Origin: Lineus longissimus
Taxonomy: Eukaryota > Nemertea > Pilidiophora > Heteronemertea > Lineidae
DNA length: 64,000 nucleotides
Reading direction: 5' to 3'
NCBI RefSeq assembly: GCF_910592395.1
Contig: NC_088310.1
Span: 2,859,501-2,923,500 of the forward strand
Under the pieces are notes generated by a model. That model saw nothing but the letters and a program-made list of their open reading frames with translations. It was not told the DNA's origin and searched no databases. Every line of letters begins with the position of its first letter. The first letter of the stretch is position 1. Below are positions 194-52,905 of this stretch, piece after piece. Position numbers and translations under genes: made by a program.

Positions 194-3100
194 GTCGCTC
201 TAACATGGTGTGGCCAGGTTTGAATGCACCAGTAATGAAAGGCAGAGAGATGGTAAAGCAGAAGCAGTTACCCACCAATCCAGATTTTGAGAGTGATTTG
301 GTGAAGTTCCGGGAGAAGATGCAGACGAGAAGAAAATTCTCTGTACCTACGCTGCAGAGAGGATATGCCGGTTCAAGATGGCCCGGAATGAGTATTGGAG
401 CTCCAGACCCTGTAGGAGATTGTAAGTTATGTTGTCATTCCTTCAAAAGAGTTTCCCATTGTGAATCACCAGTACATAAATAATTTTTGTATGTGGTTTT
501 CTGTGGCACATGTTGTGTTCACTGAGGCCATACAAATTTAATACTTTGGATCATGGCCCTCTTGCATTATGTTTACCCGATTTGGGGAAACAACACCCAC
601 CATCTAGCGCAAGTGTCACCTGTTTACCCAAATAAATATGAACTCTATCAGGTGCAGGAATTTAGTAGCAAGTGTTAGTTTTGTGATAAGAAAATAATGT
701 GCGTGATATTTGTATCATTTCCTACTCTTTTTAGATACATTTGAGGGCTTTGATACCAGAGTATTGGAGGTAAGTTAAAGCAACTCACTTTTAGCTATTT
801 ACATGACTGTACCTATATGGTAGTGAAGACTTGAAGTCTGACGTCTGAAGTTTTGATTCTAGATTAATGGATTGAAATTGGCACACATAAAGGAGTTTCT
901 CAATATAATACAGGACCAACTGCTTTTAAGCAAAATTCATGACACTTACAAACACTACAATGAATCATATCAACATATCAACTTCATAAAAGCGGCATTA
1001 GCTTTGGAACATTTGTGTAAATTGGGACCATTTATATGATACAATTTCCTTTTCAGTTTAAAATGGTGTCCAACATGACTGGTACACTGGGACGTAAATC
1101 CCGGTTCAGTGCATTTGTTGTGACTGGCAACAAAAATGGCCTAGCTGGTAGGTTGTTCGAATAGTAAATTGTAATCAAAATCACTTGCAGATTGAAAAAA
1201 ATTATTCCTGTCTTTCATAAATTAGGGTTACTCCAAGGTCGCAACTTCAAATCAGATGGGATTTCTATGCATGTTGGGGCACCCATAAAATACGATTATG
1301 ACAAAAAAATGTCTTCATCTTTTATAGGATATGGTCTGGCCAGATCTCCTAATGGACAAGCTGCTCTACGAAAGGTAAAAATGGTCGTGAACTGGACCTA
1401 CATTAGACAGGTCCAATATGTGTCTCGAATTTTGTTGTAATTTGAATGTTTTCTTTTAGTTTTGAATGATGGTAAAATGAGAAAGGTAAGGGTCAATAGG
1501 CCTTCATAGCAAACTCATTCATTCACTGCGGCAACATGATGTATCCGCGTCAACTGTGAAAGGTCATGTCTCCATTCTCTACAGTCTGTGCTCAGTACAT
1601 CTCTCCCTACACCTGCTGACGTGACATCTTGCATCACCAGTCCATCCATCTCGTCCTTCATCTTCCTACGCTGTGCTAGAAACTTACGTTAGGCAGTTGC
1701 CGTTTAAGAGTAAACATGGTTGTTCCCTACAAGTTTCTTACGTCATTTTTTTCCCTTGCAGGCAAAGAATAAAGCGGCTCAGCGACTGCAATACATTGAA
1801 CTCTACAATGGACACACAGGTTAGTAACTATTTGTAAAGAGCGCCTTGGCACTATGGTGACATCTTCAAGGTACTACATGTCACTTTGCAGTTTCAAAAT
1901 CAACGTGACGGAAGTATCTACCAGTATACTTACGGTGTTTCGATAAAATTGGTTGTTTCGTGATTAGATTTCGATTGGAGAGAGTTTGAAGCTTATTTAA
2001 AAACTTGATATTACCCATTTTGGTGTGATGGATGACATATTTGATTTTCTTTGCAGTGTTCCACAACATGTATACCAAATTCTTTTTCACCGCGATCTTC
2101 ATCAACAAAAAGCAGCAAGGTGAGTTTTTTGTGTTAATGAGGAACTAGCATTGTTATTGATTCCCCTTGGTGGTAGTCTCTAGTAACTGCATTGTATTAA
2201 AGTCACCTGAAAACCACCTGGTGGACACCCTAGCTGCTTCCTGTTGTCTTCTTCTTCTTCTTGTTCGCTCTGGACAGTCAAGTCCGATCTTCTGATGTAT
2301 TCTATGGTGTTTCGCAGCTGTTGGAGGTCTCCATAGAGCTGGTCTTGTAGGCTGGTACCTTCTGGCCAGATGTCTTTTCTCAGAGCTGCCAATCTCGCAC
2401 ATCTTGTCAGGATGTGTGCCACGGTCATCGGTTCCGTGGCACATGGGCTGCTTCCTGTTGTCTTATATAGGGCTGGCTTCCATATCTCGTCGGATTATTC
2501 TTTCTATAATTTGGCTTTCAGGATACGGCATCAAGTCTCATCGAGTTCTGAAGACCATTTGCGATGTGATGGGTATCAAAGATTTGCATTGTAAAGTTGA
2601 GGGATCGACGAAGAATGTGCAGAATATGACAAAAGCATTCTTCAATGCACTAGCTACTCAGGCAAGTCTCTGATTGGGTCATGTATTTCCAGTATAACCA
2701 TTGTTATAGTCCATTACATGGGAAAATAGCACTCAGACTTGGTGACTTCATACAGAAAAAGGCAGCAGTTAACAGTCTTGCTAGTACATGTATTTCCAGT
2801 ATAACCATTGTTATAGTCCATTACATGGGAAAATAGCACTCAGACTTGGTGACTTCATACAGAAAAAGGCAGCAGTTAACAGTCTTGCTAGTACATGTAT
2901 TTCCAGTATAACCATTGTTATAGTCCATTACATGGGAAAATAGCACTCCAACTTGGTGACTTCATACAGAAAAAGGCAGCAGTTAACAGTCTTGCTAGTA
3001 CATGTATTTCCAGTATAACCATTGTTATAGTCCATTACATGGGAAAATAGCACTCCGACTTGGTGACTTCATACAGAAAAAGGCAGCAGTTAACAGTCTT

Positions 3101-3771
3101 GCTAGTACATGTATTTCCAGTATATAAACCATTGTTATAGTCCATTACATGGGAAAATAGCACTCCGATTTGGTGACTTCATACAGAAAAAGGCAGCAGT
3201 TAACAGTCTTGCTAGTACATGTATTTCCAGTATATAAACCATTGTTATAGTCCATTACATGGGAAAATAGCACTCCGATTTGGTGACTTCATACAGAAAA
3301 AGGCAGCAGTTGTCTTGCTAGTACATGTATTTCCAGTATAACCCATATCAAAATGGGTTTTTCATTAGGCTCTTTGAAGGACCTACATTTTGTATTTGAT
3401 ATAAATTTGACTCCCCCTCCCCACATAATGGCATGACTCGCCTTGAAGTATCATAGTTTGTCTTGCAGGAAACACATAAAGAACTTGCCGAGAGACAGCA
3501 ACTCCACGTTGTGGAACTTAGGAATGAAATGGACAACCTACCGGTTGTGCTTGCATCGCCTTCGTCAGGAAAGACACGGTCGATTGGCCGAGATGAGGAT
3601 CTGGACTTTAATAGACTTTATTACGGAGGAAAAGTGCCTTATATAAAGCCAAAGCCTCGGCCGTTTTATGAAAAGTTGAGGTCATGGCGAAATTGGAAAA
3701 AGAAGGAATTGTGGAAATCACGTAACCAGGCCAAATGTCAAATAGTTCGCCTTGCTGGGTCTGAAGTGTAA
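194..3771 (+). CDS. MRPS5: Mitochondrial ribosomal protein S5 (uS5m), 3' portion, eight exons
   Basis: Encodes the C-terminal part of mitochondrial ribosomal protein uS5m, a component of the small mitoribosomal subunit. Exons by splice consensus and phase: 194-421, 735-769, 1057-1147, 1328-1374, 1762-1819, 2057-2119, 2522-2661, 3469-3771 (stop TAA at 3769-3771). The joined frame stays open throughout. The S5 RNA-binding domain is recognisable from GRKSRFSAFVVTGNKNG, running across the splice into GYGLARSPNGQAALRK and then the KNKAAQRL helix. The second S5 lobe contains YGIKSHRVLKTICDVMGIKD. The tail is basic (RSWRNWKKKELWKSRNQAK), as in animal MRPS5. The first visible exon starts in phase 2, so 5' exons lie to the left of the window. 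One intron (2662-3468) has a GC donor, CAG|GCAAGT. Family recognition is strong; exact exon borders rest on consensus only. Confidence 0.93.
2251..2446 (-). mobile_element. 5'-truncated non-LTR retrotransposon, reverse transcriptase C-terminal fragment
   Basis: Lies in an MRPS5 intron on the opposite strand. The minus strand reads a typical LINE-type ORF2 tail: a Cys-containing segment, then AHILTRCARLAALRKDIWP, then LYGDLQQLRNTIEYIRRSDL, ending in a Glu-rich (GAA/AAG)n tract. This post-RT pattern (H-I-L-x-x-C, WP, LYGD) is common in animal non-LTR elements. The fragment is flanked by a perfect 18-bp direct repeat, GCTGCTTCCTGTTGTCTT, at 2233-2250 and 2447-2464. That fits a target-site duplication from target-primed reverse transcription. 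Only about 196 bp of element remains, so it is inactive. The clade was not determined. Confidence 0.75.
2680..3344. repeat. 107-bp tandem repeat array, about six copies, in MRPS5 intron
   Basis: Copies beginning with CATGTATTTCCAG start at 2680, 2787, 2894, 3001, 3108, 3218 and 3324 (last partial). Periods are 107, 107, 107, 107, 110 and 106. The copies are nearly identical; the later ones carry a 3-bp insertion (TATATAAACC for TATAACC) and the last has lost a few bases. The array fills most of the GC-AG intron, and I see no coding in it. Confidence 0.95.
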
Positions 3772-8982: not shown

Positions 8983-9046
8983 CATGGTCAGAAAGTTCTC
9001 ATCAAATGATTGTTTGTCCGCTTCCTTACGATATCATTAATTGACA

Positions 9047-12000
9047 ATGGCCGAGACATGGTACCATGGACAAGGGAATTACCAAGGGGGTTGCAACATG
9101 GCACACGGCGGGTCCGACGATCGGTGAGTAACATTTTATCTCTCTAATTGCATGCCAACCGAAAAATGCACCCTAATTATTGATTAGAGGTGACAGATAT
9201 AAATACCCCAAAGAGCCCGGGACATTTTTGTGGCAAATTTTTGGACAAAACAGATTTCAGTTAATTGATATGGATCGATGGCTGTTTGCTTGATGCAGTG
9301 TTTGGGGTAACCGTCCGGATGCAGTTTACTGACCTCGTCCCTCCCTGTGATTTTGCTTCCGCATCATATATTCCAGATAAAAAAGTACAGTATTTTTTTA
9401 GAAAAGAATGTTTGTTCCGGTCAACGTTTATGAGTGTTTCCGTTTATAAGTGTTTCCCGTAATTGTTTTGGCAAATGCAGAAAGATAAAAGTCAACACGC
9501 TATTTCTGTGTTCCCCAGATTGAAATGTCGTGATCTCTTCTCTTGCTGTTTTTCGCGTGGAAATACTGAAAGAGGACTTGCAAATTCACGCATGAGTGGT
9601 TTGCAGTGTTGTGTTGAACAAGTAAATCACTCCTTTTTACACTATATAGTGGCACAGTTGCAGATGCACTCATCTAAAATAAACATTGAAAACAATGCTC
9701 CTTCAACGTACATGTACTTAGAGAAGTATGTTTTTATCATGTAAAAATATAGCCAATTTGAAAAAAATTACATGTATGTGTTTAGAGCGATGTTCACTCA
9801 AGAATATGACTCAACAAAATCAAGGAATCGGTGTAGTAATATAGTCACTTGGTGTGAATCGGACATCACATCAACGAGCCAGTCAATGCAAATATGTAGT
9901 GACAAATTGTTACAGCAATTTGTCACTATTTTTTTAAGGTTGTGCAATTTTCTGGATTCGCGGCACTATTTGGATGTTGTATAATACATCTGATATCTAT
10001 GTGACAACGTTCTAATGTACATTTTATGGTTTATCTTTGTATTTTAGTTACCACATTCCACACGTATCCCCTATCCCAACACCGCGGCAGCAAGACCCAC
10101 GGGAGCACTACGGGAATGTGTACGCCGATATCAGCCACCAAGGAGTACAGACCTACGGGTCCGAGCAGATCGTCCCAGCAGCGGGGTCCTGTTGGGCCCA
10201 GCCGGCACAGGATGACGAACAATCTTTAGATGGACGCGAATCAACCAGGTAAATTTGCTATTAGTTCACCTGGCCGAGCTTGGTGCATATTAGTTGACAA
10301 AATCAATGAAATTTGGTGCTGAGAGATACCAGAGAGGCAAAGTTATGATAGTTTTTCCCCTTTAAAGAGAACGCCCACGGACCTAAATTATTTCAAATCT
10401 GTCTTTACGACTGGGGAACTCCCAAGGTTCATTAGGTGCAATTACGTCACTGACACCAGAGGGGGTATGACGCCTCTGCGATTCTGGTAAGTTTCAGCCA
10501 AGAAATTAAAAAGAAATAGTATTTTTTAAGTTTGTTGCACGAAATCGCTCGTTTGCTGCTGCTTTTCAACACGACCAATAGCAATTCTTTGAAATTGTCC
10601 ACATATATGTCTCATCCCAACTCACAAGGCTCCGAGATAGCACCTTCCGTTCTTCTGATCTGTAGGTATAGGGATTTCAGACTTTCAAAATTAGATGTTT
10701 TTGCCTTTACCTTGACCTAGCTTGTCTCCGAGACATTTTTCGGCGTAACATTTTGGGCCGAGAGAAAACAAAGCAACACTGAGGTTGTTCGTGAAGACTT
10801 TTGCGGAGATGGTACGATTTCCCACAAAATGGCCACAGCTTTTGGCTGTCTTCTTTTTTTTCGCGGACGTTCGTTACCTTTGGCTGTCGGTCACGGTGTA
10901 AAACCTACTGAGATAACCGTTAGGGTGATTAATTTGGTGGCCGGGTTGTGGACCTTTTTCCAAAATGGTTTAACTGCAATTAGAGGGAAACTAAATTTCT
11001 CTACATTTTTTTTTTACTGATAATGTGAGTCCACTTAGAACTTACCTTGCCCGTATACATGTATCTCATCAATTCTAAATGCTGTACAATATTTAAAGGG
11101 ACGCCATAAGAGTCGGGATGCTGAGAACTTTGCAGAGGACCAACAATAATAATGATCAACGCCTTGCATCAATGCAGAAAGCTCTGAGTTAACAACAACT
11201 CCCACGTCTCCCCAGGGCGTAGGCTTTACATTTTTCGGGGATTTTCGGCACCCACCCCCAACGCCATAACCCGCCTCCCCAAATAAAATTCCCCAAGACA
11301 CGTTAGACAAACAACAATGCCGCCCAGCGCAGTGAAGAATCGCAGATGATTCGAAAATCGTCGCGTGCCAGATTATAATTATGGAATATCAAACTATCAA
11401 ACTATACTGGACAATATTGTAAAGAAAATATCATGGCCAATCAGAGCGTCTTAAGAGTTTGGGGCCGGGCGGCGATGTGCCAGTTGTCTATCTAGTTCGC
11501 TGGGCTCATCATCAAATGGAAAACATTTCATGACAATAACCAACCTATTGTCTGCCATCAGCCTGTAAATCTAGGTCAATCCTGGAATTTAAATGTGAAA
11601 TCCCCAGGAAGGCACGAGGCGGGCGTCAAGTTGCATTGGCTCGATATATTTGATTGAGCGGTCACGTGATATGGATTGATGGGGCCTAGCTTGTTGATAT
11701 TTCCCTGGGTAGTTGGCTATCGACAATCGGCGGTCAGCATCGTTAATTGAAGGTTGTTTCGTAGATTTTTCAACTCGATTTATGCAACCAAAGGAGGCTC
11801 TTCTTCTTTAGAGGGGCCTATATAGTGCTCTTAAAAGCGCTATGGTTTATAGCAAGATGAGCCCAAGGACAGTAAATGGAAGTAGAGGGTGAGTTCGTTT
11901 TAACTTTCAAAGTTTTGAGCATATTTCTTTGAATTTGTTTTTCTTGGTTCGTGCATGTGGCTCCTATCGGAAGCAGGTATTGCGGCAAGCTTCCCGGTCG

Positions 12001-15000: not shown

Positions 15001-18000
15001 AAATTCGTGTCAACAGGCGGAAATGTAACAATAGTCAAAAACATTCCGGTGTGTTTAACATGACACGTGGCCTACTCTACATGATCTTATGCAGCAGACG
15101 ATCTTTTTGAGATTCTGAAAAACCTCTAAGAGTTTTGATTTCACTGAAAAACATTATTTTTTGTTTTTGTGTTGGTTTTTCAACAGCTCAAACCCCTAAT
15201 ATCTAAGAGTGCACCTTGTACATGTAAGTGGTGCCAAAATGCAACATTAAAATAAACAACAAAGAATCATATTTTCAGCTCCCAGGCCAACAAATTTTCT
15301 GTTAAAATAGTCTTCCCAGAACCACTTAACTAATTATAGCAATGATTGTCTGATAGGCCAGTGCCAGAAACTGGGGACATCCACATTTTCGCCGAAATGG
15401 TGCCAAGAAGTTAGAGTTCTCCTAGTTCTCCTGGGAATTGTTGTGTTTCTTAATTAATTTCGCGTGTAAACCGAGTGTTTCCGATAAAAACTGAAGTTAC
15501 CAGCAGTTGACACGTTTTGAAATTCATCGGAATACGCCAGGCGTGTGCCGTCTAACCGCACACGGGTGGCCTGACCCCGTTAATGGGTTGACACTAAAAA
15601 CCATGCAAAGCAATTTTTTTCACTCTGAGATATAAAAGTTTTTCAGCTTTTGAAGGTTTTTCGGCTTGACACAAATATAGCATCCCGTCGAGGTTTATTC
15701 AGCGAAGTGTACAACCCTTAGAGGAGATCTCGAAATCCATTTGGGGCTTTTCATTTTACCACAAAACCTCTACCGGCGGCATATTGGGGTTGGCCGAAAA
15801 ACCTATAATTGTCTTTCCGAAGCTCAAAAACCTTTATTTCTAAGAGTGTAATATCATAAATTTTCTTTATGTGATATCAGCGCATAAATTAACGCATTCA
15901 TGGTGTGTAGAATAAAAAAATAGATATCTGCAAGAACCACTCGTTCTTTTTATCTGAACTTTTATGTCTTTGACTTTTATCATCATTTTGTGCTCATCGG
16001 ATTTTAAGTTTTCACCTGACTTCATAGTCAACAAGAGTTGTATTTTTATTTTATCATTTGGTATTTCTTTGGATGTTGAGTAAACAATCATATTCTATTT
16101 ACTTCCTCATAGCGGGCTTATCTCCTGATCACGTGGGGAAGAGATTGGGAGATCATGACCAGAATCTTGACCAAATTTACCAGAGTATATTGTCATCTGA
16201 ACCAGGAAATAAGAGATAGACTGCAGGTGCGACAGAATAGAGTACAAAGAGAATCCTCTCTTTCCTTTTCGACTGAAATGTAACTGTTTTAAAGGGAAAA
16301 TATTGGCAGGCGCCTGTTGGGCAATTTACATTTCGAAATATGACCGATATGTGCTGCCTGACACGACTGAGCCGGGTGAAATTATTCATGAAAAAATTGA
16401 GTCTGGCTCTGGTTTGTGAGAAAAGCATGCAAGCGAACGTGAATATGCACTTAGCGCCGATGTACTGGGAGACACCTATCAGCCTCGCGGCGAATCTAAA
16501 TCTTTCCCAGCATTTTCTTGGAATACAAGCTTGACTAAAACTTTCAATGTTAAACGTATTCGATTAAAAGTATAACCGAATTAAGAAGAGACAATAAAGA
16601 AATAAGTGATATATCATGATCATGAAATATGTGACCTTATGAAGAGATGCGGATGTGACGTTTTAAAAAAAATGGTCTCAGCCACCGTACATATTACATT
16701 AACACAGTTTATTGCAGAAAACAAAGAATCGAAAGCTAAAGAAGAAAAGAAATGTACCCTTTAAAAAAAAGGTGTTTGTGGGTTTTTTCTAAACTGTATG
16801 TTTCTCGTCACACAAGTAAGCAGCTCGTAGAGGTTTTTCAGGGATAAGAAAAACCCGTTGATAGTTTTCAAAAGCTCAAAACCTTGAAGAATGTGGGTTT
16901 TGTAAAGAGTTCAATTTCCCTTCACTTTTTTCTTTCTCCTCAGGTCAACTCCCGCCCCGTCAAAAGAGAGACGGCTGAAAATCAATGGCAACATAAAAAC
17001 AATATGCAAACTTTTGCCAATCAAGGACACGACGAAAACGAGACTGTCTCAGCACAACACCATGTCATACAGTATTGTTTACATCCGAAAGGACAAGGTC
17101 TTCGGGAAAGGTAATTGCATGCGACTATGTTGTGTAATTCATGTTGTGTTATTTTCAGATCTACCCCTGCCCCTTCGAAAAAACGGAGGACGGACATCAA
17201 CGCGAATATTGAGCGGTTGGGTCAACTTTTGATCAAGGGCAAGCTGACGCAGCACAGTATAATGTGTCTTAGTATCATTATCATTAGAAAACACCAAATG
17301 ATTCAAAAAGGTAAAATAATCCTTTAAAGATTGGTCGTATAGTGGTGATAACTCTTATACTGAATGAAGGATATTGAACAAACACTCTCAAAAACAGAGA
17401 AAGGACAAACACCTAAAGGTGCTTGAGTTTGTGAAAAACTACGAAGGATTACAAATATGCATTCACGACATGCAAAATACAACGAATATGCATTAACGAA
17501 TGTGAAATGCGATCATTCGAAATATCGTGATGCATTCATGACTATGTACAGAAGCTGATTACAGTTACATTAGAAGGAACGCACCTCTACGACTGTGAAC
17601 ACAGCTACGATGCACGAATGCCGTAACTTGCATCTGACCATGTACCAGTCAGGTTAATTGAAATAACCTTTTTTCCAGGTTTGCCAAGTTTTGGTCCAGC
17701 TTCACCAGTCGATGGAGTCAATCTGTCCGAGTTTGCAGGAGAGGGTGGCGATGTCACTGGGGTAATTGTTTTTACAATAAGAGCAAATAAATTCAGCACT
17801 TCCAGTCGGAACGAAATCTTGATCTTTTTCTCATCACCTCATCCCCTCACTTATCTCCTCACTAGTTTTCGTGAACACCCATACCGATTTTGTATTCTGC
17901 TGCATTATTGCTTTGAAATCTAAGATTATGGTGAAACTTTATCGTCATTCCATGCATCCTTGTAACAAGTGGTTTTCAATATACTCCGCCTCTTCGTACA

Positions 18001-21000
18001 TGTACATGTACATGTATTTCAAATAGTGACGAAGAGTGAAAAAAACCCTGAATCTCATGATGCAATCTTATGGCAAGAGCTCCTTTTAGAATGTTAACTG
18101 CATACAATATACACTGTGTAATATGGAAAGGGTTAAAAACATCTCTTATACGATTCATATTACAGGCGTTGACAGGGTTTATGATTGTCACGACCAAGGA
18201 TGGTAAACTGATATATCTCTCGGAGAACGTTACGCAATATCTCGGACACTCTATGGTAAGCGAAATATCTTATAATCACCATAAGACATAGGCTAACAGT
18301 CGCGGACAACGTGTCGAAAACTTATCTTTTTTCGAGAAGTTAGTCAATATCAGTAATTTGAATGTTGTTGACGTCATAACAGCAAAGGTGCGCTGACCAA
18401 AAATTCCGGTTGACGTAAATGATAGCGAAGGTTCGCTGCCGCGATCTTTGAATTAATTAGGCTTGCCAGTTCATTTTCCACTAGCTTCAGTGTGGTCTTT
18501 GCACATTTTCTCGAAATGGAACACTATTTCAGGTCGATATGTTGACCCAGGGAGACAGCATCTTTGATATCATTGACAAGAAGTATCACAACGAATTCGA
18601 GGAGAAGTTGCGAGACGCCAGTGAAACCATGGATCCCCACGCAAAGCCCAGAAGTGATGATATAATTCTTTTCTGCCAGATGAAAGTCCGCAGTCAAAAG
18701 CGCCAGACGAGCAGCGGGGACCAAAAGGTAAATCAATATATAACGTGAAATTTTCAATTTTGCATTTTATGATTTCGTCAAAAATGCATTTTCACCACAC
18801 CAAGGTTTTTGCATTTTATCAAGATAAACCTTGGCAGGTTCAGGATGCAAAAATGAGGAGGTATTGCAAAATTACGTTTAACATTCAGTCACTGACTCGC
18901 TTTTGTTAAATGATGTGATGAAAAAACCGGACACCAAATGGTGATGTGCATTTACACCTTTCTTGCACTTCCTGTGATATCTTTTCCTGCAACCTTCCTC
19001 AGGCTCTCGAGAATCGACAAGAAGTTGAGTTCAAAATTTCGGATTTCATGAAATCCCGTATATTCACATCACATCAAATTTGCGACAAATGCCTTAGTTG
19101 AAGACCCTCTTATCGTACAAATTAAATATTCCAACAGGTTAATTTTAGTTGAATGGCAACCCCATGCCCGTGTTCAAAGGAAGTCATTGCGATATTTTAG
19201 AAATAACCGCAAGAAAGTACAAAAAGTTACATATTTTATTGGAGAGTCACGTAAATTTCAAATTATCCAATCCTTCCGTGATGACGTCAATATCAAGTCT
19301 TCAGGATGGGGTTATCTTTATACTAAGATTTATTTGGCCTTCAAATGATAGAGATTTGGTATCATCCAGAAATGGATAAGATTGTGTGTTCTATATATAA
19401 ACTACATATGTAGATGTCATACTTTAAATCAATTGGCGAGGTGATTTCTTTGGTTATTTGTGTTCGCTGAGAGTACCCCCATTCTAATTCTAGGCAACGG
19501 TAGAGTCCCAAATAAGGCATAAAAACGCTAAAATCCAAATACATGTGTTTTGATGTTGCCAGAAGTGCACATGTGTACCATAATAGTATGGATTGGCCAA
19601 TACTTCTGCATGTATAATTGCAACTCGCCCTTTTGTGGTTGCCCGTAGGTTAAAATAAAAACTGACATGAAATAAAAACATCCACGCTCGTTCAAGTTTG
19701 AAGTCAGCTTTTTAACATCCTTTCTCCACTTTTTGCTCTTTCCCGTGATTGGGTGAGACAATGCAGGATGTGGCAACTACCGGGATGCTAATCCGACGCC
19801 TATCTCAGGTGTCCCCAATACCATTAGCACCACGCTCACCAATGCATCAGTTTCCCAATCTTATATCAAGCTTCCTTCTTTCTTTTGTTTCTCTTATGAA
19901 TTGGCAACCGAGGCAAAATAGAAATCGGATCTCGCGAATGACATCCGCCGAATAGATGCCGTCCAGAGATATGTCACTTTGAAACAGCCAAGGGCTGACT
20001 TCATAACGTATGTTTGACGTCTCCGACCGCCACCCAGTGAAGGTCGCCTTGAGCAAGGCACTATACAGGGGCTTCTTTCAAATAATAATATTCCCAAGTG
20101 ATACTCCTTGTCAATACGTTTCTTTGCCCCTGACCTCGCCAATACACAGTCAAAGCCCGCTTGAGCCTAGACCTAAATGCCCATTGCTCTACACTCTTAT
20201 CAAGGGTTATCAGGATAAGTCTTAATAACATCGACCCCCTGTAACAGCTACCACGGGGGTCACTAGGCCAAAAAGAATGTAGTGGTCACTCCATCTTGGC
20301 CTGAGGTCCATATAAAACTATATGCGTATACTGCTGCCGAACGCTCAGTTCAAAGGTCATCAATAAAATGAAAAGGTAAATGCCATCTTTGGTATAACGA
20401 CAGAAGTACATGTGTGTGCAATACGGTCAACCGAATCATACCCAGTTTCAAATTTAGTATTCCTGCGGCGAAGTTGGCTTCTTCAAATGTTCATGATCAA
20501 TAGACGTACAGTATATTGACTTGTAGAGAAGTTTTCTGTCACCATCATAATTTTTTCGGCGGTTTGGCTAATTATTTTCTTTTCGCCTCTTGAATGAATT
20601 ACTTTGTGAGAAATTGAGGAAGTACGCAATACTTTCAATCACAGAGAAAGACGGAAGTCCAAATGGACAAGCTAGATATTGTCCTCTAACTTACTTTTTT
20701 TCTCAGCGTGTGCGACGACTCACATTGAAAGAAACGGTTTCTTAATAATTGAAATCGCTGCCAAATGAAGTTTCAACCCCCCCCCCCCCATTCAAGGGTT
20801 AAAACTCGTCACTGAAAGTATTTTTTATGGTGTGTTTTCCTTTCTTGTCGCTCTGCTCTTTGACACCTAGTCATGCGGTGTCGGGGAAGTGATCAGCGTA
20901 ATGTGAACCATTCGGAAATGACTTGACAATGAGGAGTGTCGCTTACTGAATGCATCTGATCCGCCTATACTGCTAATCAGATGAGAAGAGGTTAGAATTA

Positions 21001-24000
21001 GATGAGGGGATAGCTAATTCGCTTTGCTGAGGGTTACTTAAAGATGAAAGAGGTTTCTTTAGTCGCTGCGGTGGGGAATTGACGTCACTTGAATGCGCAT
21101 CAGCGTCCCGGGTGCGGCGAAGTTTGATACATGTATGAAGTTAGCATCTTTTTTCGGAGTTGGGTGCTTTGATACATATTCTTAACATAGAACATTCAAA
21201 ACGTATGTGGGCGACGATACGTAGTTCGATTCTTTTTTGTCGCAATATATTTGCTAATGACGACGAGCGACCATTATACATTCCCAGGTTAATCTTTTTG
21301 CCCAATAAAAACAGACCATAATTATGTTTCCCCGGCAATTTCTGTTGGTTCGAATCATTTTTTTGCTATACATTTTTCTTTCTTTTCTTTGATTTCAGCT
21401 GATGCACATCAAGGGCCACCTCTCCTGGCTACCCAACAATCACAATGAACCAATATTCCTCGGCATCTGCAACCCCCTAATAACACCAGACTTTAAGGAC
21501 AGTATGGTGCAGACGTCCACAATGTCATTCCGAACCGTTCACCAACCCGACATGAGATTTAAAGAAATATGGGAGGGCGTGTAAGTTGTCATTTTACTGT
21601 CTAATTCTGTCCCATTCATCATAAGATGATCACCTGTGCACATGGTGGCCAACGGATTTTTTAATTTAAATCTTCATTTTGCAGAGGAGAGTTCCATTTT
21701 GGTTGGACGAACAAGGAAATCGTTGGTCATTCCTGGTATGAAAAGATTCACCCGGATGATGATATGCGGGCCAGAGAAAAACACAAACAATGTACGGTTC
21801 GTTCAGAAGTACAGTGGTCTAGTACAGTGGTCTACCTCTCTATTAGGGACAGTGATTTTGGTCCAAAATATGTAGTTTCTGTACAATATTTGACCTCTGT
21901 GTAATCAGGATGCCTTTCTATCAACGACAGCAATTGTCAGTCCCACGGGTGTCCTTAATAGGGAGGTTCTACATGTGCTGCGCTAATCAGTTGATAAGAA
22001 TGTCATGTGAAAGTCATGTGAATTCAGCAAGTCTGAACGGATTTGTGATGAGCTACATGTACAATGTACATGTATAAACATATAGCTTTTATACTTTTTC
22101 TCTTATTTGACGCAGCAATAAAGTATAAGGGCCAACTCGTACTGCTGCATCCAGAAAGCAACTAAAACCACATTTAGTCAGTTACTGCTGCATCTCAGCA
22201 ATTGCAGCTCAAAAGTACGGAGAAGCTATGCTTTTGAGCTTTGACAACAAATACATGTATTGGCCTTTGAAAACACGAGCACTTTTTTCAAGAATGTGTT
22301 TTGGACTTTTTTTCAGTCATGAACAACTTTCTGTAGAGACACATTCTCATTTATAATTCACTTTGAATGTAATATAAAAGTATCGAAAATTCTTTTAAGA
22401 TCTTATTACATGCATATTGTTAGCCATTTGAGGGAGAGAACGAGTCTCTTCGAGCGCGTTGGTTCCCTCCGGTGCCTCCGGTTTCCTTCCGATATAGTAC
22501 TAATCGCTCAATATTGCCCTATAGTGGCCATTCTCAACTCAATCTCTTATCAATCTTTTTATGTTAATTTCAGTATTTTCACACGGACACGCACCAGAGT
22601 TAGGGTGTATGCTGACAATTCGTATGATGACGAAGTACGGGCATTACATCTGGCTGAACTTGATTATGCATGTGGATCATCCCTATGCAAATAGTGACGA
22701 ATCAGCTGTGATTGTCATCAACCAAGTCATAAGGTAGGAATATTTACCTTCTACAGCTTAAGAGACCATCAAACGAGTGATTTTTATCACGGCGACATGT
22801 AACAAGTATCGCTGTGATGACGGAGCGATTATTATGTAATTATGCAGTTTGAATTAATGAAATTTGCTAATATTAGTCCATGTTGATGTGTCAGAGTTGG
22901 CCAATAATTCTCTAGGACATTATTCGGTTGCGCACGCAACTGCCCGTTATTGCCTCTGGGAACGGCCAATGACACAATCATTCATTGATGTCACTGACCG
23001 TGATATATTTGATGAACAGCTACATTGTGCTATGACGTCACTTCAGTTAAAAACGTCTCTGAAAGACATCGAAACAATATTTGTCATTTTCTGAAGGTCA
23101 CTGCCAGAGTCATTTTCATGCCCCTTATTATTCCTTGAACCTCTTATCACAGGAATGGTGATGTCGTTGCTTAGTTCATGTAGGAGACTGAAGGTCAACT
23201 TCAGAAATATCAAATTGAATTAATATTATGAATCTCGCATTTGAATTGAAAAATAATTCAAACTACACTATATACATTGAAACAATCTCAACGAAAAACA
23301 CGCGAGTACAATAGTCTGAAGTCCGCTATACTGAACAATAAGCATTTCGGGGCGTGGGTCTCGAGAGACAGTTTTGATGTATCTGTGGAAGCCACGCAAG
23401 TTTGACTGTGATTGGCACAATCTGGTTTTCTCGGGGATGATTGTGGTGAACTAAGGCAATCATCATAGAGTGTTGACACTGGGGTGATAAAGACCTAATT
23501 GGGGATGGTATTGTACATGATTAGTCTTGGCATTACGTTTGGCTTCCATTGTGACAGTTCCTTTAGCAGTGGGTTAGTGGCAGGGATCTTGTCGAATATC
23601 AATAGGTAAGCTACATGAATGCGAAGCGTTTCCGTAAAGACTTGGCAAAGAATAAAACAATAATTTGGTGGTGGAAAAAGAAAGGAACACAACCAAAAAA
23701 TTTTACTCCAAATTATTCTTCTCGGGGTGCTGAAATTTGTCGTTACAATTCTTTGGTAGACATGGCTATTATGTAAAGAACAAAACAACAACAAAAAATC
23801 TTTCCAGTCAAAGTTTTCTTTGTGGTTTTGTGGTCCTGAGACCACGCTGTTTCAAATGAGCTTCGGAGTACCTTGGATTTCGCCTCGAATCCAATATGGC
23901 CGCCAAAATCTAAAATAGCTGCCAAACCGCATCAAATTGAGATTCTGAAGGCTCCTTTTGCCTCAAACATTCCTTTTTTTCTGCCTTTGTCAATGATGAT

Positions 24001-27000
24001 GCTACGCGTTGGTTATAAAACTTCGTCGTGCAAAGTTCACGTGTACGACTCGATGTAGACGAAAGGAAAGAAGTCACCAGACAGGCAAGGCGGGAGCGCG
24101 GACGAGACAAGACCACAATTGATTTTTTAAGCCTTTTAGCAGTTAAATTGTCAATGTTTGACCGCGACGCATCAAAGAACGCGTGGTGTTGTGAATCTGA
24201 AATTTAGATTATGTTATTCCGGACAGTCGGGCAAGTAAATGGTGAAAAATAAAATGGTGATTGACCACGGAAATTTTTTTTTAATCGACAAATTAGACAG
24301 ACTTTGATATTTCCACTCTTTTCAGCCAACTGGCAGAAAAAACTCAAAACACGCCCCCTTTTACCCAATTAGCAAAATTCGAAATTAATTTTTTCATCAA
24401 ATAATTTCTTTATATCTGTAGACTTGCCACAACAAATATTTTTTCAATACCTCTCCAAATATGTACTTGAGAGTAAAAAACATGCACTCGTCTAATAGAT
24501 AGGCCTGGACCCTCCAACCTATGAATATTCATTAGTGGTCTTGTCTCAATGAAGGTACATTTCAGGGGTTAACATTTTGCGATTTTTTTCAAACTAATGT
24601 ACATGACATCCCACAACTCTCCAACAAAGGAAAGTCATATCTGGACATTTTTGGAGAAATGAGAGACATTTCAAAGAGTGGTACAACTGTGCCAAAGCGA
24701 CGAAAGAGGACAAAATCGACAAAAAGTCATGATTTTGCACCCAACAGCACCAAATTCAAAGACCTGCCCTGGCCAGAATAAGCAAGCTATGGAGCTGAAA
24801 CTTTAGGATGTGATTTAGGAATATCTTTGCTGCTTAGGGAACAACTTTCAGAATCAAGGCCTAAGTAGTTTCAAAGAAATTACAAAATGAATGGCAACAC
24901 AACAAGACTTGTAAAAATGAAACCGAACTTAGACCGGGGTTAGGTTGACTCTTATTTGGGTCAAATTAAGTTTTTTTCTCATTATTTTAGCTTGTTTTGA
25001 CCTTAAATCATCAGCAATACAATATTCTAAATGAATTAGAGTGATTTGAGCACATTCAAATTTTTCACTATATTGACCCAAAATGTAGTGTAAATAGAGA
25101 CAAGACCACAATTGATTTTTTAAGCCTTTTAGCAGTTAAATTGTCAATGTTTGACCGCGACGCATCAAAGAACGCGTGGTGTTGTGAATCTGAAATTTAG
25201 ATTATGTTATTCCGGACAGTCGGGCAAGTAAATGGTGAAAAATAAAATGGTGATTGACCACGGAAATTTTTTTTTAATCGACAAATTAGACAGACTTTGA
25301 TATTTCCACTCTTTTCAGCCAACTGGCAGAAAAAACTCAAAACACGCCCCCTTTTACCCAATTAGCAAAATTCGAAATTAATTTTTTCATCAAATAATTT
25401 CTTTATATCTGTAGACTTGCCACAACAAATATTTTTTCAATACCTCTCCAAATATGTACTTGAGAGTAAAAAACATGCACTCGTCTAATAGATAGGCCTG
25501 GACCCTCCAACCTATGAATATTCATTAGTGGTCTTGTCTCGGACTTCCCCATCCAGAAGACTTCCCCAGAAGACTTCCCCAGAAGACTTCCCCCGTTGTG
25601 TTGACAAAAGGATTTCATTAATTCCGGGTTAATTTAAATTAATACCAAGTTATCACTGAATTAGACCAAATACTTCACAAAGACGCAAGAATGTCTTATC
25701 CATTTGCGAAAATAGCACCACAAACAATGAAATGTGTCAAAGTCAGATTATGCCGCGATCTCATAATTTCATTCCAATTATCACTGACGCAATTATCTTA
25801 TTTTTAATATAGCTATCAAATAAAGTAACATTTACTATCAAATATGTTTGATTCCTTGTCTGTTTAGGTATCACCTTTATTGTCAGCCACACTTCAAATG
25901 ACCTTGTCTATCTTTAATATTAATCTTGATACATGTCTACCCTTAATCAAACAATTTATTTGTATATATATCCAAAATCTGATGCATATCACCAGCAAAT
26001 ATACTCGACATTCTCGTTTGACTCGTGAATGGCACAGCGTATTCTTGGATCCTGAAAACATTGTTATGGAACAGCATATATTTTTCACAATCAATCTTGG
26101 CACCAATACACGACCCGTTGCGAGAACTGCAGTTTCTTGACGCGACCTCTACAAAGTAACAGTCGACAGTTTATGCGGTTAATGTTTCATAAAAATTGTT
26201 TTTCAAAGTAATCACCAAAAAGCATGAGGTTTTGAACAGAGAAATATACTTCGCACATTAACTGCATGCCTTTTAAAAAGAATTATCCACGCATATAAAG
26301 TTTGCCTGCGGATGTAAAGTTCTCTATAACATGGTATCACCCATAAGTATCAGTTGTAAATCTAATTTTATTAATGAAATTTCCCTGATCCATGCCACGA
26401 AGGGTTTCGCGCTGTTAGCGAGTATCAAACACCTAATAGCCCGCGCTATCTCTCCCGCGACATCAAACGGTTATGGACTTATTCCGCCGAGATATACGCC
26501 TCGCGGTGAGATCTTTTCTCCCAATGTCGAGATAACAATCGCAAGAAGATGAATTCGCCGCGCTAAGACTTTTACGAAATACCAGGAGCCCCTTATGCGC
26601 GGTCTTATTGCCTTAAATTTATCTCGGGATTGGTGTCTTGTATGGTCTCTCGCGGCGGATCCGCCCCTGTAACCATCTTAGAGATATCACTGGGTGCTAG
26701 CCAGGTTTCCCCGACCCGCTACCGTTTATATACTTGGGGATGTTGTCAGTTGTTCGGGTGGCGTAATTGCAGTTTCGAATATCAGGATTTCGGTGTGAAA
26801 GGATCTAGAACCCACGAGAGAAAGTCCGGGGAAGAAGGTATAGTATAATGCTGTCGAGGCCATTGGTCTCCACAGCGATGCATCTCTAATCCGTCAGAGA
26901 GAGCGAGAGCAACTCAATTACGTCTATTTGCCTTGTCGTTTTAGGCCTTGCGTGGGGGTCGATGCTATCGAGATTCGCCCTAATGTCTCCGCCCCATACA

Positions 27001-30000: not shown

Positions 30001-33000
30001 CTTGAATATTATCGCTCCTTTGGAGAACGGATATTGAGACTAAAATAAATTATATGCAGTTTCTTCTCATGCCTCCATGAAAGGAGTCAAAGGATTGTTA
30101 AATAGGCCTATTTCTAGGAAACCCCACTTAATAAAAAAATCACGCAAGACCTTTGAGGGCCCGATATCTTGTCTGCCGTACGCCACACACGAGCTTCCAA
30201 TTGACTCCATTCGAACGAAAATTAGCATTTGGCATCGAGCGAAATTGGCTTGTTAAGTTCGTTCTGTTATCAGTCATTCTCCACAGAATTTGTTTTATTT
30301 TGATTCCACAATTTGCTGTGTTTACAAATTAATTCCGCAGATTAGGTCAGCAGACGCTCCGTGAAAAAAAACGCATCCGGGCATTGGGAAACCAGTAATT
30401 TAGACAATTCTAACATTTTCACTTCACTGCTTTTAATCATACGAAAATAAGCATACACTATAAGCGCCATCTTCTATCTATTCAATGAACTGCATCGCGA
30501 CATCGTAGAGGAAGGAACTCGTGAAGCGCCTACTGATGGTGCGGTTTTTAAACGTCCTTACTTCAGCAGCAACTCAAAACCAAAAGTTCAATCTTCTTTA
30601 TATTTGTCGTGAACAAAAGGTGCCAATTCGAACACAAGACTGAAACACAGCCATCTAGCTCTACGAATTTATCTTATGAATTCTTAACGTCCAATTTTTT
30701 TATCTGTTTGCAGTGAAAAAGAAGCCAGTTCATACATGTCCACGAACAGAGCCACTGATGACACTAGTTTTATACATATACTTCTGCTAAAGTCACACGT
30801 TAACCGATTAATCCTAATTCTTCAAAAAATCTTTATCTTTGCAGTGATAAAGAAGCGCCTCTCTACCGCGAACAAAGCCACCGATACAGCCCAAACATTG
30901 TACCCAGCCCTGAGCAGCTGCCTGATGCCACTGTTGACCATGTTGACGGCCATACCATCCGTCCTATCATAAACGACTGGCCTGACAGTTATTACTCACG
31001 TGGCGATGTCGCCGGGTACCACCCCACACCACACCAGGAGCAGTACTACAGTCGATCGTACGGACCGTATCCTGACTACCAGGGGTATCAGGAGAACGGG
31101 GAGGAGAGCTACGTTCACCCTCATCCAGATGTCCCAACAGTTGTCAACGCATTCACGGTCAGGACGAGCGGAGACCCTCCAAAGAACGCCTTTATGTCTT
31201 CATCCCCAGTCCTTCCCGGAGAGCAGCAAACCAGGTTACCGGACACGACCCAACTGCCCAGTAAGGTCCGCGTCGAAATAAGGGCCGAGGACAGTCATAT
31301 CACCCCGCTGACGCCAGATCGAGAACCCCAAGACGAAATCGACGGTGTCCTGCCATCTAGAAGGTTCGAGTTGGGCCCACCAGCTGGACTCCCGACTCCT
31401 GATGCTTCGCCGCTCGCTTCGCCCGTAACACCGAGGATCAAACAAGAAAAAGGCGAGGAGTACCTGGCTGAGCTCACAGTTGATGATGTCAAGAGAAACC
31501 TCGAAGACGAATTGAACAGTATAGAATTGAACCAGAATAACACAATCTGGTCTGGGAAGAGAAAAATGCAAACATACTCACCTTCAAACGAGATGGCGTA
31601 TCAAATGTCGCCACCTAAACTACCAAGAAAAAAAAGCTCGTCTGATTTGCAAGTCCCCGCAGTATTTTCAGATTCGGACTGGCTAAAGTATCGGCAGTAT
31701 TTAAGAACTGGGCAACGTTGTATGTCGACTGGGACAAACGATCTAGAAATGAAACAAAAGATGCGGCGAACCTGCGGACGAACACGGAGTTGTGAAGCGA
31801 GATCTCCGACCTGGCACCCTCGATTACCTCACGTGTTGACGAAACTAGAGCGGGGTTCATGTAGCACATCCGTGTCGCCTCAGAGAGCCGCAACCGGCGC
31901 CGACCACGAACGAAGTGCTGTTCTGGATAACTCGTCCAATAGTAGTTCAACGCTGCATCATTCGCGGATACGAACGCCTTCAAAGCGCTCTTATACCGAG
32001 GAGACAAACCTGATGTCGCCACTCTCCCAAAAGAACCAACTTTCTCAGGTTGGCTACGCAGATACCAAAAGAAACACTTTCCAAGCGAAACGAGTTTGCA
32101 GACCAGTTGATCCTCTGCCGATCGGTTTGCCTACAGACTTTTCATCTTTGTCACCCGAGAGTCATGAGGACTCATGTCCTACACGATCCGTGGGAGTGAA
32201 ACGTAACTCACTGACAAACCTCACCCACTCGGCTAGCTTCGACGGGGCATCCTTTTATGATTCGCGAACTGGAACTGGAAAGCAGGTCTTGCCCAGTTTC
32301 AGTTGTAGCTTCCCGCCAAAGAAATCCTCGCCGATGTCACCGACAGAGCTGCCAAAACAGAGGTACCTCTCTGTCGGAACAGCCTTGCAAGACCTTTCAG
32401 AAATGAAAGTGAGGCAATACAACATGGAGCCACGTCGCTCATCGGAAAACGAGATACAACGATTGACGTCGTTTCAAAATAACGAATGGTACCCCTGTGA
32501 TGCGAAAGACACTGCCAACTATCCTGCATCTGATATAAACATCTGCAGCGGTGGACAAACCTTTAATTACACGTATGCACCGGAAAAGCAGTGGTCAGAA
32601 ACGCACCATTGCTATCCGACAGGTCAAAATGATGAATTTTCTCTTCTTAATTCGTTCACACAATACTCCTGCAGTCCTCAGATTTCGCAACTCAATCAAT
32701 CCTGCTCGGGTCGGACGACGGGGACGGGGACGGTCTCTTCGTTTCCTTGCACGCCAGCAGGCAACCAAGGTTCTTGGGGTTACCAAGGGGACAACAGTAC
32801 TACGGCACCAACAAGCACCAGCGAAGCATCCCAATTTCCAACGGCATTTTCATCAGGTCAGCAGATGGACTACAGTCAGCAGCCGCCACTGCCGTCAACC
32901 CTCTCAGTGGACCGCCATCCAGGCCCTCCCCGAAGACACAGCTTCTACTTGGACCCTGAGATGTCACAATCATCACCAATGAATGCCAGTGTCTTTGAAG

Positions 33001-33086
33001 ATGATCTCACAGAAGACACACAGTCGAGCTATCCGACAAGTCCAGAGTCCATTCTAGAACTGACCGACTACCCATGGTCTAACTAA
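9047..33086 (+). CDS. NPAS4/dysfusion-like bHLH-PAS transcription factor, ten coding exon positions
   Basis: A neuronal-type bHLH-PAS transcription factor; family members act in the nucleus as heterodimers with ARNT-class partners. Exons: 9047-9123, 10048-10248, then 16944-17110 or 17159-17310, 17679-17761, 18166-18255, 18533-18727, 21399-21580, 21685-21791, 22574-22733, 30845-33086. All phases agree. The predicted length is 1167 aa (first bHLH exon) or 1162 aa (second). Order: a novel N-terminus of about 93 residues; bHLH 94-148 with the NPAS4-type S-K-x-R-R-x-x-I-N signature; PAS-A about 177-271 (ALTGFMIVTTKDGKLIYLSE, YLGHSM, GDSIFDIID); PAS-B about 325-410 (GHSWYEKIHPDD, YGHYIWLNLIMHV); and a long Ser/Pro/Gln-rich C-terminal region, probably for activation. 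Vertebrate NPAS4 is about 800 aa and starts almost at the bHLH, so both ends here are longer. A poly(A) signal lies at 34151. Confidence 0.9.
13585..13601. repeat. 17-G homopolymer
   Basis: Seventeen consecutive G on the plus strand inside the large intron of the NPAS4-like gene. It can form a G-quadruplex and is error-prone in sequencing. Confidence 0.9.
15110..15850. repeat. Possible dispersed-repeat fragments
   Basis: Two stretches ending AGCTCAAA[C/A][A/C]CC...TCTAAGAGTG (about 15175-15205 and 15818-15850) and several AAAAACCTCT/AAAAACCTAT motifs suggest two diverged copies of an old short repeat. A weaker relative lies near 16865. No termini or coding are visible. Confidence 0.3.
16944..17110 (+). 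other. bHLH exon A of the NPAS4-like gene (canonical-length loop)
   Basis: Acceptor CTCAG|G and donor AAAG|GTAATT. Length is 167 nt, entering after two bases of an Arg codon and leaving after one base of a Gly codon. It encodes STPAPSKERRLKINGNI, helix 1 KTICKLLP, a loop, then RLSQHNTMSYSIVYIRK, matching NPAS4/dysfusion bHLH domains in length and in the conserved LLP and RLS...YxRK positions. It alternates with exon B. Confidence 0.88.
17159..17310 (+). other. bHLH exon B of the NPAS4-like gene (tandem duplicate, shortened loop)
   Basis: Acceptor TTTCAG|A and donor AAAAAG|GTAAAA. Length is 152 nt with the same entry and exit phases as exon A, 48 bp downstream of it. It encodes STPAPSKKRRTDINANI, helix 1 ERLGQLL, a loop five residues shorter than in A, then KLTQHSIMCLSIIIIRK. 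About half the aligned residues are identical to A. In the shared STPAPSK segment five of seven codons differ, all synonymously, which suggests that both copies have been under protein-level selection. It is most simply read as a mutually exclusive alternative exon; a decaying duplicate is the alternative. Confidence 0.85.
18369..18376. promoter_or_regulatory. Intronic full CRE in the NPAS4-like gene
   Basis: A perfect TGACGTCA between the two PAS-A exons. Further perfect copies within this gene lie at 19282-19289, 21080-21087 and 23033-23040. The motif matches the promoter CRE; function is inferred only. Confidence 0.35.
20777..20789. repeat. 13-C homopolymer
   Basis: Thirteen consecutive C in the intron 18728-21398 of the NPAS4-like gene. 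The rest of that intron holds no exon I can support, apart from two perfect CRE motifs (19282 and 21080). Confidence 0.9.
24104..25540. mobile_element. LTR-like non-coding element with two identical 444-bp end repeats
   Basis: Two direct repeats, 24104-24547 and 25097-25540, appear identical over 444 bp and bracket a 549-bp unique centre. Each repeat begins GAGACAAGACCAC and ends with its exact inverse GTGGTCTTGTCTC. The unit as a whole is flanked by GGAC on both sides (24100-24103 and 25541-25544), whereas the inner junctions carry unrelated bases (AATG, AATA). The composite therefore inserted as one piece with a 4-bp target duplication (or CGGAC, 5 bp, if the last C is flank). The centre has no long ORF, no clear primer-binding site and no purine tract. 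The architecture resembles a miniature LTR (TRIM-type) element, but the ends are not TG...CA. It sits in the last intron of the NPAS4-like gene. Identity of the ends implies recent insertion. Confidence 0.7.
25541..25594. repeat. 13-bp tandem repeat (AGAAGACTTCCCC) x3
   Basis: Three consecutive copies start at 25555, 25568 and 25581, directly beside the right end of the LTR-like element. They follow a related GGACTTCCCC at 25541. Confidence 0.85.
30690..30870 (+). repeat. Diverged tandem duplication of the last-exon splice acceptor
   Basis: A pyrimidine tract plus TTTGCAG|TGAAAAAGAAGC at 30714 recurs 131 bp later as TTTGCAG|TGATAAAGAAGC at 30845. Similarity continues into ...CGAACAGAGCCAC/CGAACAAAGCCAC. 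The downstream acceptor keeps the long frame. Use of the upstream one shifts the frame by 131 nt and ends at a stop at 30970-30972. No donor of suitable phase makes the upstream copy a cassette exon. Confidence 0.6.

Positions 33087-37125: not shown

Positions 37126-38940
<1,815 letters not shown>

Positions 38941-44699: not shown

Positions 44700-52905
<8,206 letters not shown>

What the first reader, a model, noticed from the sequence alone, without database searches (positions are those of the whole stretch)
16944..17310. Two tandem, apparently mutually exclusive exons encode alternative bHLH domains of an NPAS4-like factor
Exon A (16944-17110) and exon B (17159-17310) both start with an AG acceptor completing an Arg codon, both encode STPAPSK-[E/K]-RR-x-x-IN-x-NI and a helix-loop-helix ending IRK, and both end AAA G|GT. 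Either fits between exon 10048-10248 and exon 17679-17761 in frame. A joined to B shifts frame and stops at 17230-17232. Skipping both also shifts frame and stops in the PAS-A exon. In the shared STPAPSK, five of seven codons differ synonymously, a sign of selection on both copies. Alternative DNA-binding/dimerisation domains chosen by splicing in a bHLH-PAS gene are, to my knowledge, not described for NPAS4 or dysfusion.
Basis: partly seen in the sequence, partly recalled or inferred. Interest (0 to 1): 0.92.

Follow-up and report, generated by a model that had tools for sequence, protein, structure and literature searches.

The report
Alternative bHLH exons in worm NPAS4
A ribbon-worm gene for an NPAS4-type transcription factor carries two side-by-side versions of the exon for its DNA-binding domain, only one of which fits into a full-length protein at a time, and the gene of its likely partner protein (ARNT) carries the same kind of pair; whether the animal really uses both still has to be seen in its RNA.

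Summary
Exon A (16944-17110) and exon B (17159-17310) each encode an NPAS4-type bHLH domain. Either one gives a single open frame across a ten-exon GT-AG model (9047-33086); joining both, or skipping both, gives premature stops. They are the only two matches above the Pfam bHLH_NPAS4 cut-off in a six-frame search of the 391-Mb genome, whose contig sizes match Lineus longissimus (Nemertea). Third codon positions are saturated while residues are constrained, with no stops: this rejects a B that drifted neutrally since duplication. A and B keep different NPAS4 residues, five each. The 48-nt gap is shorter than every other intron examined, so A-to-B splicing should be sterically blocked. Mutually exclusive bHLH exons are therefore a known kind (TCF3); a bHLH-PAS case, let alone in both partners, did not turn up in my searches of an open-licence library. 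No RNA and no relatives could be examined, so the splicing itself is inferred.

The parts
9047..9123 (+). likely first coding exon, MAETWYHGQGNYQGGCNMAHGGSDD(R), donor tcg|gtgagt; in-frame upstream stop at 9038
   Evidence: one of three phase-compatible ATG exons found by scan upstream of 10048, chosen as the nearest; least certain exon of the model
10048..10248 (+). exon upstream of the alternative pair, ends AACCAG|gtaaat, leaves AG of the Arg codon
   Evidence: open frame and splice sites
16944..17110 (+). exon A, bHLH domain variant 1 (STPAPSKERRLKINGNIKTICKLLPIKDTTKTRLSQHNTMSYSIVYIRKDKVFGK)
   Evidence: PF23183 50.1 bits
17111..17158 (+). 48-nt gap between A and B, shorter than the other introns examined
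17159..17310 (+). exon B, bHLH domain variant 2 with a 5-residue shorter loop (STPAPSKKRRTDINANIERLGQLLIKGKLTQHSIMCLSIIIIRKHQMIQK)
   Evidence: PF23183 34.3 bits; AF2 helix-loop-helix
17679..17761 (+). first common exon after the pair (GLPSFGPASPVDGVNLSEFAGEGGDVTG)
18166..18255 (+). PAS-A exon
18533..18727 (+). PAS-A exon
21399..21580 (+). exon spanning the end of PAS-A and the start of PAS-B
21685..21791 (+). PAS-B exon
22574..22733 (+). PAS-B exon
30845..33086 (+). long last exon, C-terminal region, stop at 33084-33086; no Pfam family

Best explanation
The locus is an NPAS4/dysfusion-type gene of a nemertean, the only one of its kind seen in the genome. Its bHLH exon was duplicated in tandem long ago, and the two copies (A and B) are used as mutually exclusive alternatives: each mature mRNA carries one, giving two factors with the same PAS and C-terminal parts but different DNA-binding/dimerisation domains. 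Shown here: gene anatomy, frame logic, single locus above the family cut-off, long-term sequence constraint on both copies. Inferred: that both are spliced into mRNA; that exclusivity is enforced by the 48-nt gap (donor to branch point under 50 nt) plus loss of frame on double or zero inclusion; and that the two isoforms differ in partner or DNA-site preference.
For: One open frame with A or with B; premature stops with both or neither. Both above the PF23183 cut-off, the only two such matches in the genome. A versus B over 50 aligned codons: 26 residues identical, differences by codon position 21/12/32, Fisher p=0.0004, 15 of the 26 shared residues in different codons. With A constrained and B neutral, at most 2 of 1500 simulated pairs reached the observed combination at each of 8 branch lengths; both copies at omega about 0.1-0.2 come close to the data. 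A and B each match the solved NPAS4 sequence at 22 of 50 columns, 5 matches private to A and 5 to B. The gap of 48 nt compares with 104 nt or more for the 9 other introns of the model and 120 nt or more for 33 introns estimated in TCP1-family genes. AF2 models B as helix 7-25, loop, helix 31-49, mean pLDDT 82. An ARNT gene and an E-protein gene of the same genome have tandem bHLH exons with the same border phases and the same excess of third-position change.
Against: No transcript evidence. No orthologous locus could be compared (protein database switched off; no animal genomes in the other collections). B has a loop 5 residues shorter than A and NPAS4, which could alter or abolish dimerisation. 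Neither exon reaches the cut-off of the general HLH model. A partial duplicate of the start of the last exon of the same gene (30699-30763) looks like a relict, so this gene does keep dead duplicates. The AF2 models rest on two sequences, with pTM 0.36 and 0.34, and Foldseek found no match for the B model. RNA folding around the pair is unremarkable (z -1.19, 10 of 100 shuffles fold as well).
Confidence: 0.8

Rival explanations
1. B is a relict: a former alternative exon that is now rarely or never spliced, not yet decayed.
For: Short loop in B; lower PF23183 score (34.3 versus 50.1); weaker polypyrimidine tract than A (12 versus 16 of 17 pyrimidines); relict-like duplicate of the last exon start in the same gene.
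Against: No stop, no frameshift, intact splice sites; neutral drift since duplication rejected; B keeps 5 NPAS4 residues that A lost; B's acceptor has as many pyrimidines as, or more than, 6 of the 8 other acceptors listed besides A. Recent loss of use cannot be excluded by these data.
Confidence: 0.12
2. The B isoform is made but does not bind DNA as a normal heterodimer; it acts as a dominant-negative or partner-titrating form because of its shortened loop. (A sub-case of the best explanation, so the odds overlap.)
For: 5-residue loop deletion relative to A and NPAS4.
Against: The SK-RR--IN basic residues are kept in both copies; AF2 still gives two helices with a short loop.
Confidence: 0.2
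3. A and B are both included, or B is used as part of a larger retained exon.
For: The 48-nt gap is open in the A frame.
Against: B is out of frame in A+B and in A+gap+B, with a stop at 17230-17232.
Confidence: 0.02
4. Assembly or haplotype artefact.
For: None seen.
Against: 65 of 150 aligned exon sites differ and the upstream flanks are no more alike than shuffles, so these are not allelic copies; if the species match is right, the assembly was built from long reads with 0.4% duplicated BUSCO genes (PMC8593623).
Confidence: 0.01

Closest known systems
TCF3 (E2A) exons 18a/18b, giving E12 and E47
   Same: Two neighbouring exons, one per mRNA, giving two isoforms (PMC12585103, passages); that they encode the bHLH domain is recalled
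   Different: TCF3 is a class A E-protein, not bHLH-PAS; in this genome an E-protein gene on C14 has a pair of its own
NPAS4 (vertebrates) / dysfusion (insects)
   Same: bHLH, PAS-A, PAS-B order and sequence, NPAS4-type bHLH
   Different: No alternative bHLH exon turned up for these genes in the listings and passages seen
HIF3A/IPAS and ARNT exon variants (recalled)
   Same: bHLH-PAS genes diversified by splicing
   Different: As recalled, those variants change or drop a segment rather than choose between two homologous bHLH exons; not tested
Mutually exclusive exon clusters in general (human catalogue, PMC5740500, passages read)
   Different: Human catalogue; the word bHLH does not occur in its text

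Membership tests
NPAS4/dysfusion family of bHLH-PAS factors | NPAS4-type bHLH | tested here: met
   PF23183 A 50.1, B 34.3 bits, cut-off 27
NPAS4/dysfusion family of bHLH-PAS factors | PAS-A and PAS-B following the bHLH, closest to NPAS4 among solved structures | tested here: met
   isoform A: 7xi3_B NPAS4 146.7 bits over query 5-342, best non-NPAS4 chain HIF1A 80.9; PAS_11, PAS_3, PAS, PAS_9 above cut-off
NPAS4/dysfusion family of bHLH-PAS factors | placement in the family by a tree with many animals | not testable with these tools
   animal protein database switched off
Mutually exclusive exons | adjacent homologous exons of the same phases, each in frame with both neighbours | tested here: met
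Mutually exclusive exons | joint inclusion and joint skipping lose the frame | tested here: met
   premature stops for both
Mutually exclusive exons | a mechanism that stops the two exons being joined | tested here: inconclusive
   48-nt gap against 104 nt or more in this gene and 120 nt or more in 33 other introns; not shown in cells
Mutually exclusive exons | both exons seen in transcripts, never together | not testable with these tools
   no RNA data available
Mutually exclusive exons | both copies kept by selection | tested here: met
   codon positions 21/12/32 of 50, simulation; rests on the pair within one genome, so recent loss is not excluded

The most novel reading that the evidence does not exclude
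A splicing-based dimer code: in this ribbon worm both members of a bHLH-PAS heterodimer (NPAS4 and its general partner ARNT), and separately an E-protein, choose between two bHLH exons, so two genes yield up to four NPAS4-ARNT heterodimers with different DNA-binding halves, switched by cell type or activity through coordinated splicing.
Probability: 0.3. Interest if true: 0.82.

Novelty: new variant of a known kind. Interest (0 to 1): 0.66.

Why it matters
Diversity of bHLH-PAS factors is usually put down to gene copies, partner choice and PAS domains (general knowledge). A splice switch that swaps the DNA-contacting and dimerising half itself, in NPAS4 and again in the hub partner ARNT, would let one factor read different sites without a second gene. 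It makes a direct test possible: do the isoforms of the two partners match up, and do they bind different sequences? The recurrence in three bHLH genes of one genome also asks why bHLH exons are prone to this.

Tried and rejected
Third copy of the bHLH exon in the window: tblastn of A and B against the window gave only each other at E below 0.001; the next best, 50452-50562 (E 0.006 with B), holds a stop and lies outside the gene. A second NPAS4 gene: no other match above cut-off (best of the 5 others 24.0 bits against 27). RNA secondary structure as a selector: fold of 16860-17400 little better than shuffles (z -1.19). Structure search with the B model: no PDB match at E up to 10, uninformative for a 50-residue two-helix model; the A model was not searched. 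The close HLH pair on C12 (15342336/15345298) is two halves of one HES-type domain, not a duplicate. Reading the ARNT pair as one double-bHLH protein by retention of its 124-nt intron: the frame stays open, so this is not excluded for ARNT. Pairwise dN/dS: of four methods one gave no value for dN or dS (YN00), one failed (LWL85), one gave dN but no dS (NG86), and one gave dS 9.5 (ML), so only 'saturated' can be said of dS.

Intron survey: of 47 adjacent pairs among the 58 matches, 33 could be used; 14 were dropped because their profile ranges overlap or leave a gap of more than 12 positions (smallest rough estimate among the dropped 210 nt). One match (C2:20460349) contains about 219 extra nt, that is, an intron read through.

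PMC8593623 was read as section 0, part 1 of 2; PMC4066832, PMC7570057, PMC12585103, PMC3137626, PMC5740500 and PMC12774657 only as passages; all other papers only as listings. Open-licence papers only.

Full report
WHAT IS THERE. The window (64 kb) lies at C3:2859501-2923500 of a 391,118,348-base genome in 30 contigs. Nine contig lengths were returned (C1 29.44, C2 29.19, C4 25.59, C5 23.93, C9 20.54, C12 17.97, C14 16.76, C16 16.53, C19 15.89 Mb). [quoted passage not shown] That paper gives 32 scaffolds, not 30, so this may be another version. The species is inferred with high confidence, not proven; C3 itself was not measured.

GENE MODEL. Exons 9047-9123 (predicted), 10048-10248, A 16944-17110 or B 17159-17310, 17679-17761, 18166-18255, 18533-18727, 21399-21580, 21685-21791, 22574-22733 and 30845-33086 have GT-AG borders. 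From exon 10048 on they read 1141 residues with A and 1136 with B, with one terminal stop. With both A and B, or neither, the frame is lost. Pfam finds the NPAS4 bHLH (PF23183) and PAS domains. The three best solved chains for isoform A are NPAS4 (7xi3, 7xi4, 7xhv), and the same entries hold ARNT2 or ARNT as partner chain. So it is an NPAS4/dysfusion-type gene; a tree of the family could not be made.

THE PAIR. A and B are 2 of 7 genome matches to PF23183 and the only ones above its cut-off. Over 50 aligned codons 26 residues are identical, with 21/12/32 differences at codon positions 1/2/3; nonsynonymous distance is 0.35-0.41 and synonymous distance is saturated or undefined. Of the 26 identical residues 15 use different codons. 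In simulations with A constrained and B neutral on equal branches, 'no stop, at least 26 identical residues, at least 32 third-position differences' was reached in at most 2 of 1500 runs at each of eight branch lengths, although indels were not modelled. Two constrained copies (omega about 0.1-0.2) give values near those seen. Against the solved NPAS4 sequence (mouse by recall) each copy matches 22 of 50 columns; 5 matches are private to A, 5 to B, and 9 columns carry a residue shared by A and B but not by NPAS4. If those nine are derived, the duplication (or a later conversion) came after them; the saturated third positions make it old. Flanking introns hardly align: the 48 nt upstream are no better than shuffles, the downstream stretch is weakly alike (3.2% of shuffles as good).

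HOW IT MOST LIKELY WORKS. A donor-to-branch-point distance under 50 bp is counted as steric interference in the human catalogue of mutually exclusive exons (PMC5740500, passages); here the whole A-B gap is 48 nt. The 9 other introns of the model are 104 nt or longer, and 33 introns estimated in TCP1-family genes of this genome are 120 nt or longer (estimates from alignment ends, good to a few codons). So A should not readily be spliced to B, and if it were, the frame would break. Which exon is chosen would then depend on competition between the A acceptor (16 of 17 pyrimidines) and the B acceptor (12 of 17) and on unknown regulators. RNA folding gives no sign of a selector structure. B lacks five loop residues; AF2 nevertheless gives two helices with a five-residue loop (mean pLDDT 82, pTM 0.36, two-sequence alignment; A 72 and 0.34). 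This is weak evidence that B can still be a helix-loop-helix.

THE SAME IN TWO OTHER bHLH GENES. Following close pairs among the HLH hits of the genome showed an ARNT/tango gene on C2 with two tandem bHLH exons, 1176563-1176720 and 1176845-1177002 (158 nt each, 124 nt apart), followed by ARNT-like PAS exons. The first is 87% and the second 58% identical to human ARNT over the matched stretch (human sequence typed from recall); the second, joined to the next exon, has ARNT as best solved match. Each joins in frame to the exon at 1178904; both together break the frame; retention of the 124-nt intron keeps it open, so a double-bHLH protein is possible there. The ARNT exon upstream of the pair was not located. 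An E-protein gene on C14 (minus strand) has two bHLH exons, 16213818-16213673 and 16213218-16213070, 454 nt apart, between RRQANNARER and ERNLNPKAACLKRREEEK exons. All four domains score 48-56 bits for HLH when joined to their neighbours. Codon differences are 15/10/33 of 52 (ARNT, p=3e-6) and 10/9/27 of 48 (E-protein, p=2e-5). In all three genes the exon's first base completes an Arg codon and its last base starts the next codon, so lengths are 2 mod 3. NPAS4 is a partner of ARNT/ARNT2 and dysfusion of tango (PMC4066832, passages).

HOW COMMON. In the bHLH loci that I held, 3 of 23 have two tandem bHLH exons (my count: NPAS4, ARNT, E-protein; flanks 1.5-5 kb only, and the ARNT and E-protein loci had been fetched because they showed close pairs, so this is no unbiased rate). 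Three other bHLH-PAS-like loci held with 1.5-kb flanks (L011-L013, types judged by eye) have one bHLH each. In the listing of 74 HLH matches (by eye) two further same-strand neighbours within 5 kb cover overlapping model positions: C5 9273149/9277547, in long separate frames, and C20 10429804/10431101. I could not fetch them.

WHAT IS KNOWN. TCF3 exons 18a and 18b give E12 and E47 (PMC12585103, passages); that they are the bHLH exons is recalled. The E-protein pair here is the invertebrate counterpart or a parallel; which of the two was not tested. For bHLH-PAS genes, searches joining mutually exclusive exons with bHLH-PAS, ARNT, NPAS4, dysfusion and tango showed no such case, mostly from listings; of 36 papers only 20 were listed. 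The amphioxus survey of bHLH-PAS genes does not use the words alternative or splice. Subscription journals are not in that library.

AGAINST. No transcripts, no relatives. Recent disuse of B, or a dominant-negative role through its short loop, remain open. The same gene carries a partial duplicate of its last exon start (30699-30763 against 30832-30888, local score 54 against a shuffle maximum of 30 and an intron-window maximum of 32) that has no good donor and looks like a relict.

VERDICT. Observation confirmed; interpretation well supported at DNA level; kind known, setting (bHLH-PAS, and both partners of one heterodimer) apparently new.

Noticed in passing
L019/L020 = G000:C2:1176563-1176720 and 1176845-1177002: ARNT/tango gene with two tandem bHLH exons of 158 nt each and matching borders, with a 124-nt gap that also stays open in frame; ARNT is the NPAS4 partner family.
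   Followed up: yes
L023 (also L016) = G000:C14:16213818-16213673 and 16213218-16213070 (minus strand): E-protein gene with two tandem bHLH exons, an invertebrate counterpart or parallel of E12/E47.
   Followed up: partly
30699-30763 versus 30832-30888: Tandem partial duplicate of the acceptor and start of the last exon of the same NPAS4 gene; the upstream copy has no good donor and looks like a relict.
   Followed up: partly
24104-24547 and 25097-25540: 444-nt direct repeat, 100% identical, inside the long intron of the gene.
   Followed up: no
2680-3343 and 36050-36621: Tandem repeat arrays (units of about 107 and 68 nt by self-comparison).
   Followed up: no
37745-38062 (-), 40071-40589 (+), 44703-45509 (-): Neighbouring genes: tRNA methyltransferase GCD14 type (PF08704) and a guanidino kinase (PF00217/PF02807) by Pfam, and an Otx-like homeobox tail (by eye; no Pfam hit).
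   Followed up: partly
G000:C5:9273149/9277547 and G000:C20:10429804/10431101: Further close same-strand HLH matches, possible gene clusters or split domains; not fetched.
   Followed up: no
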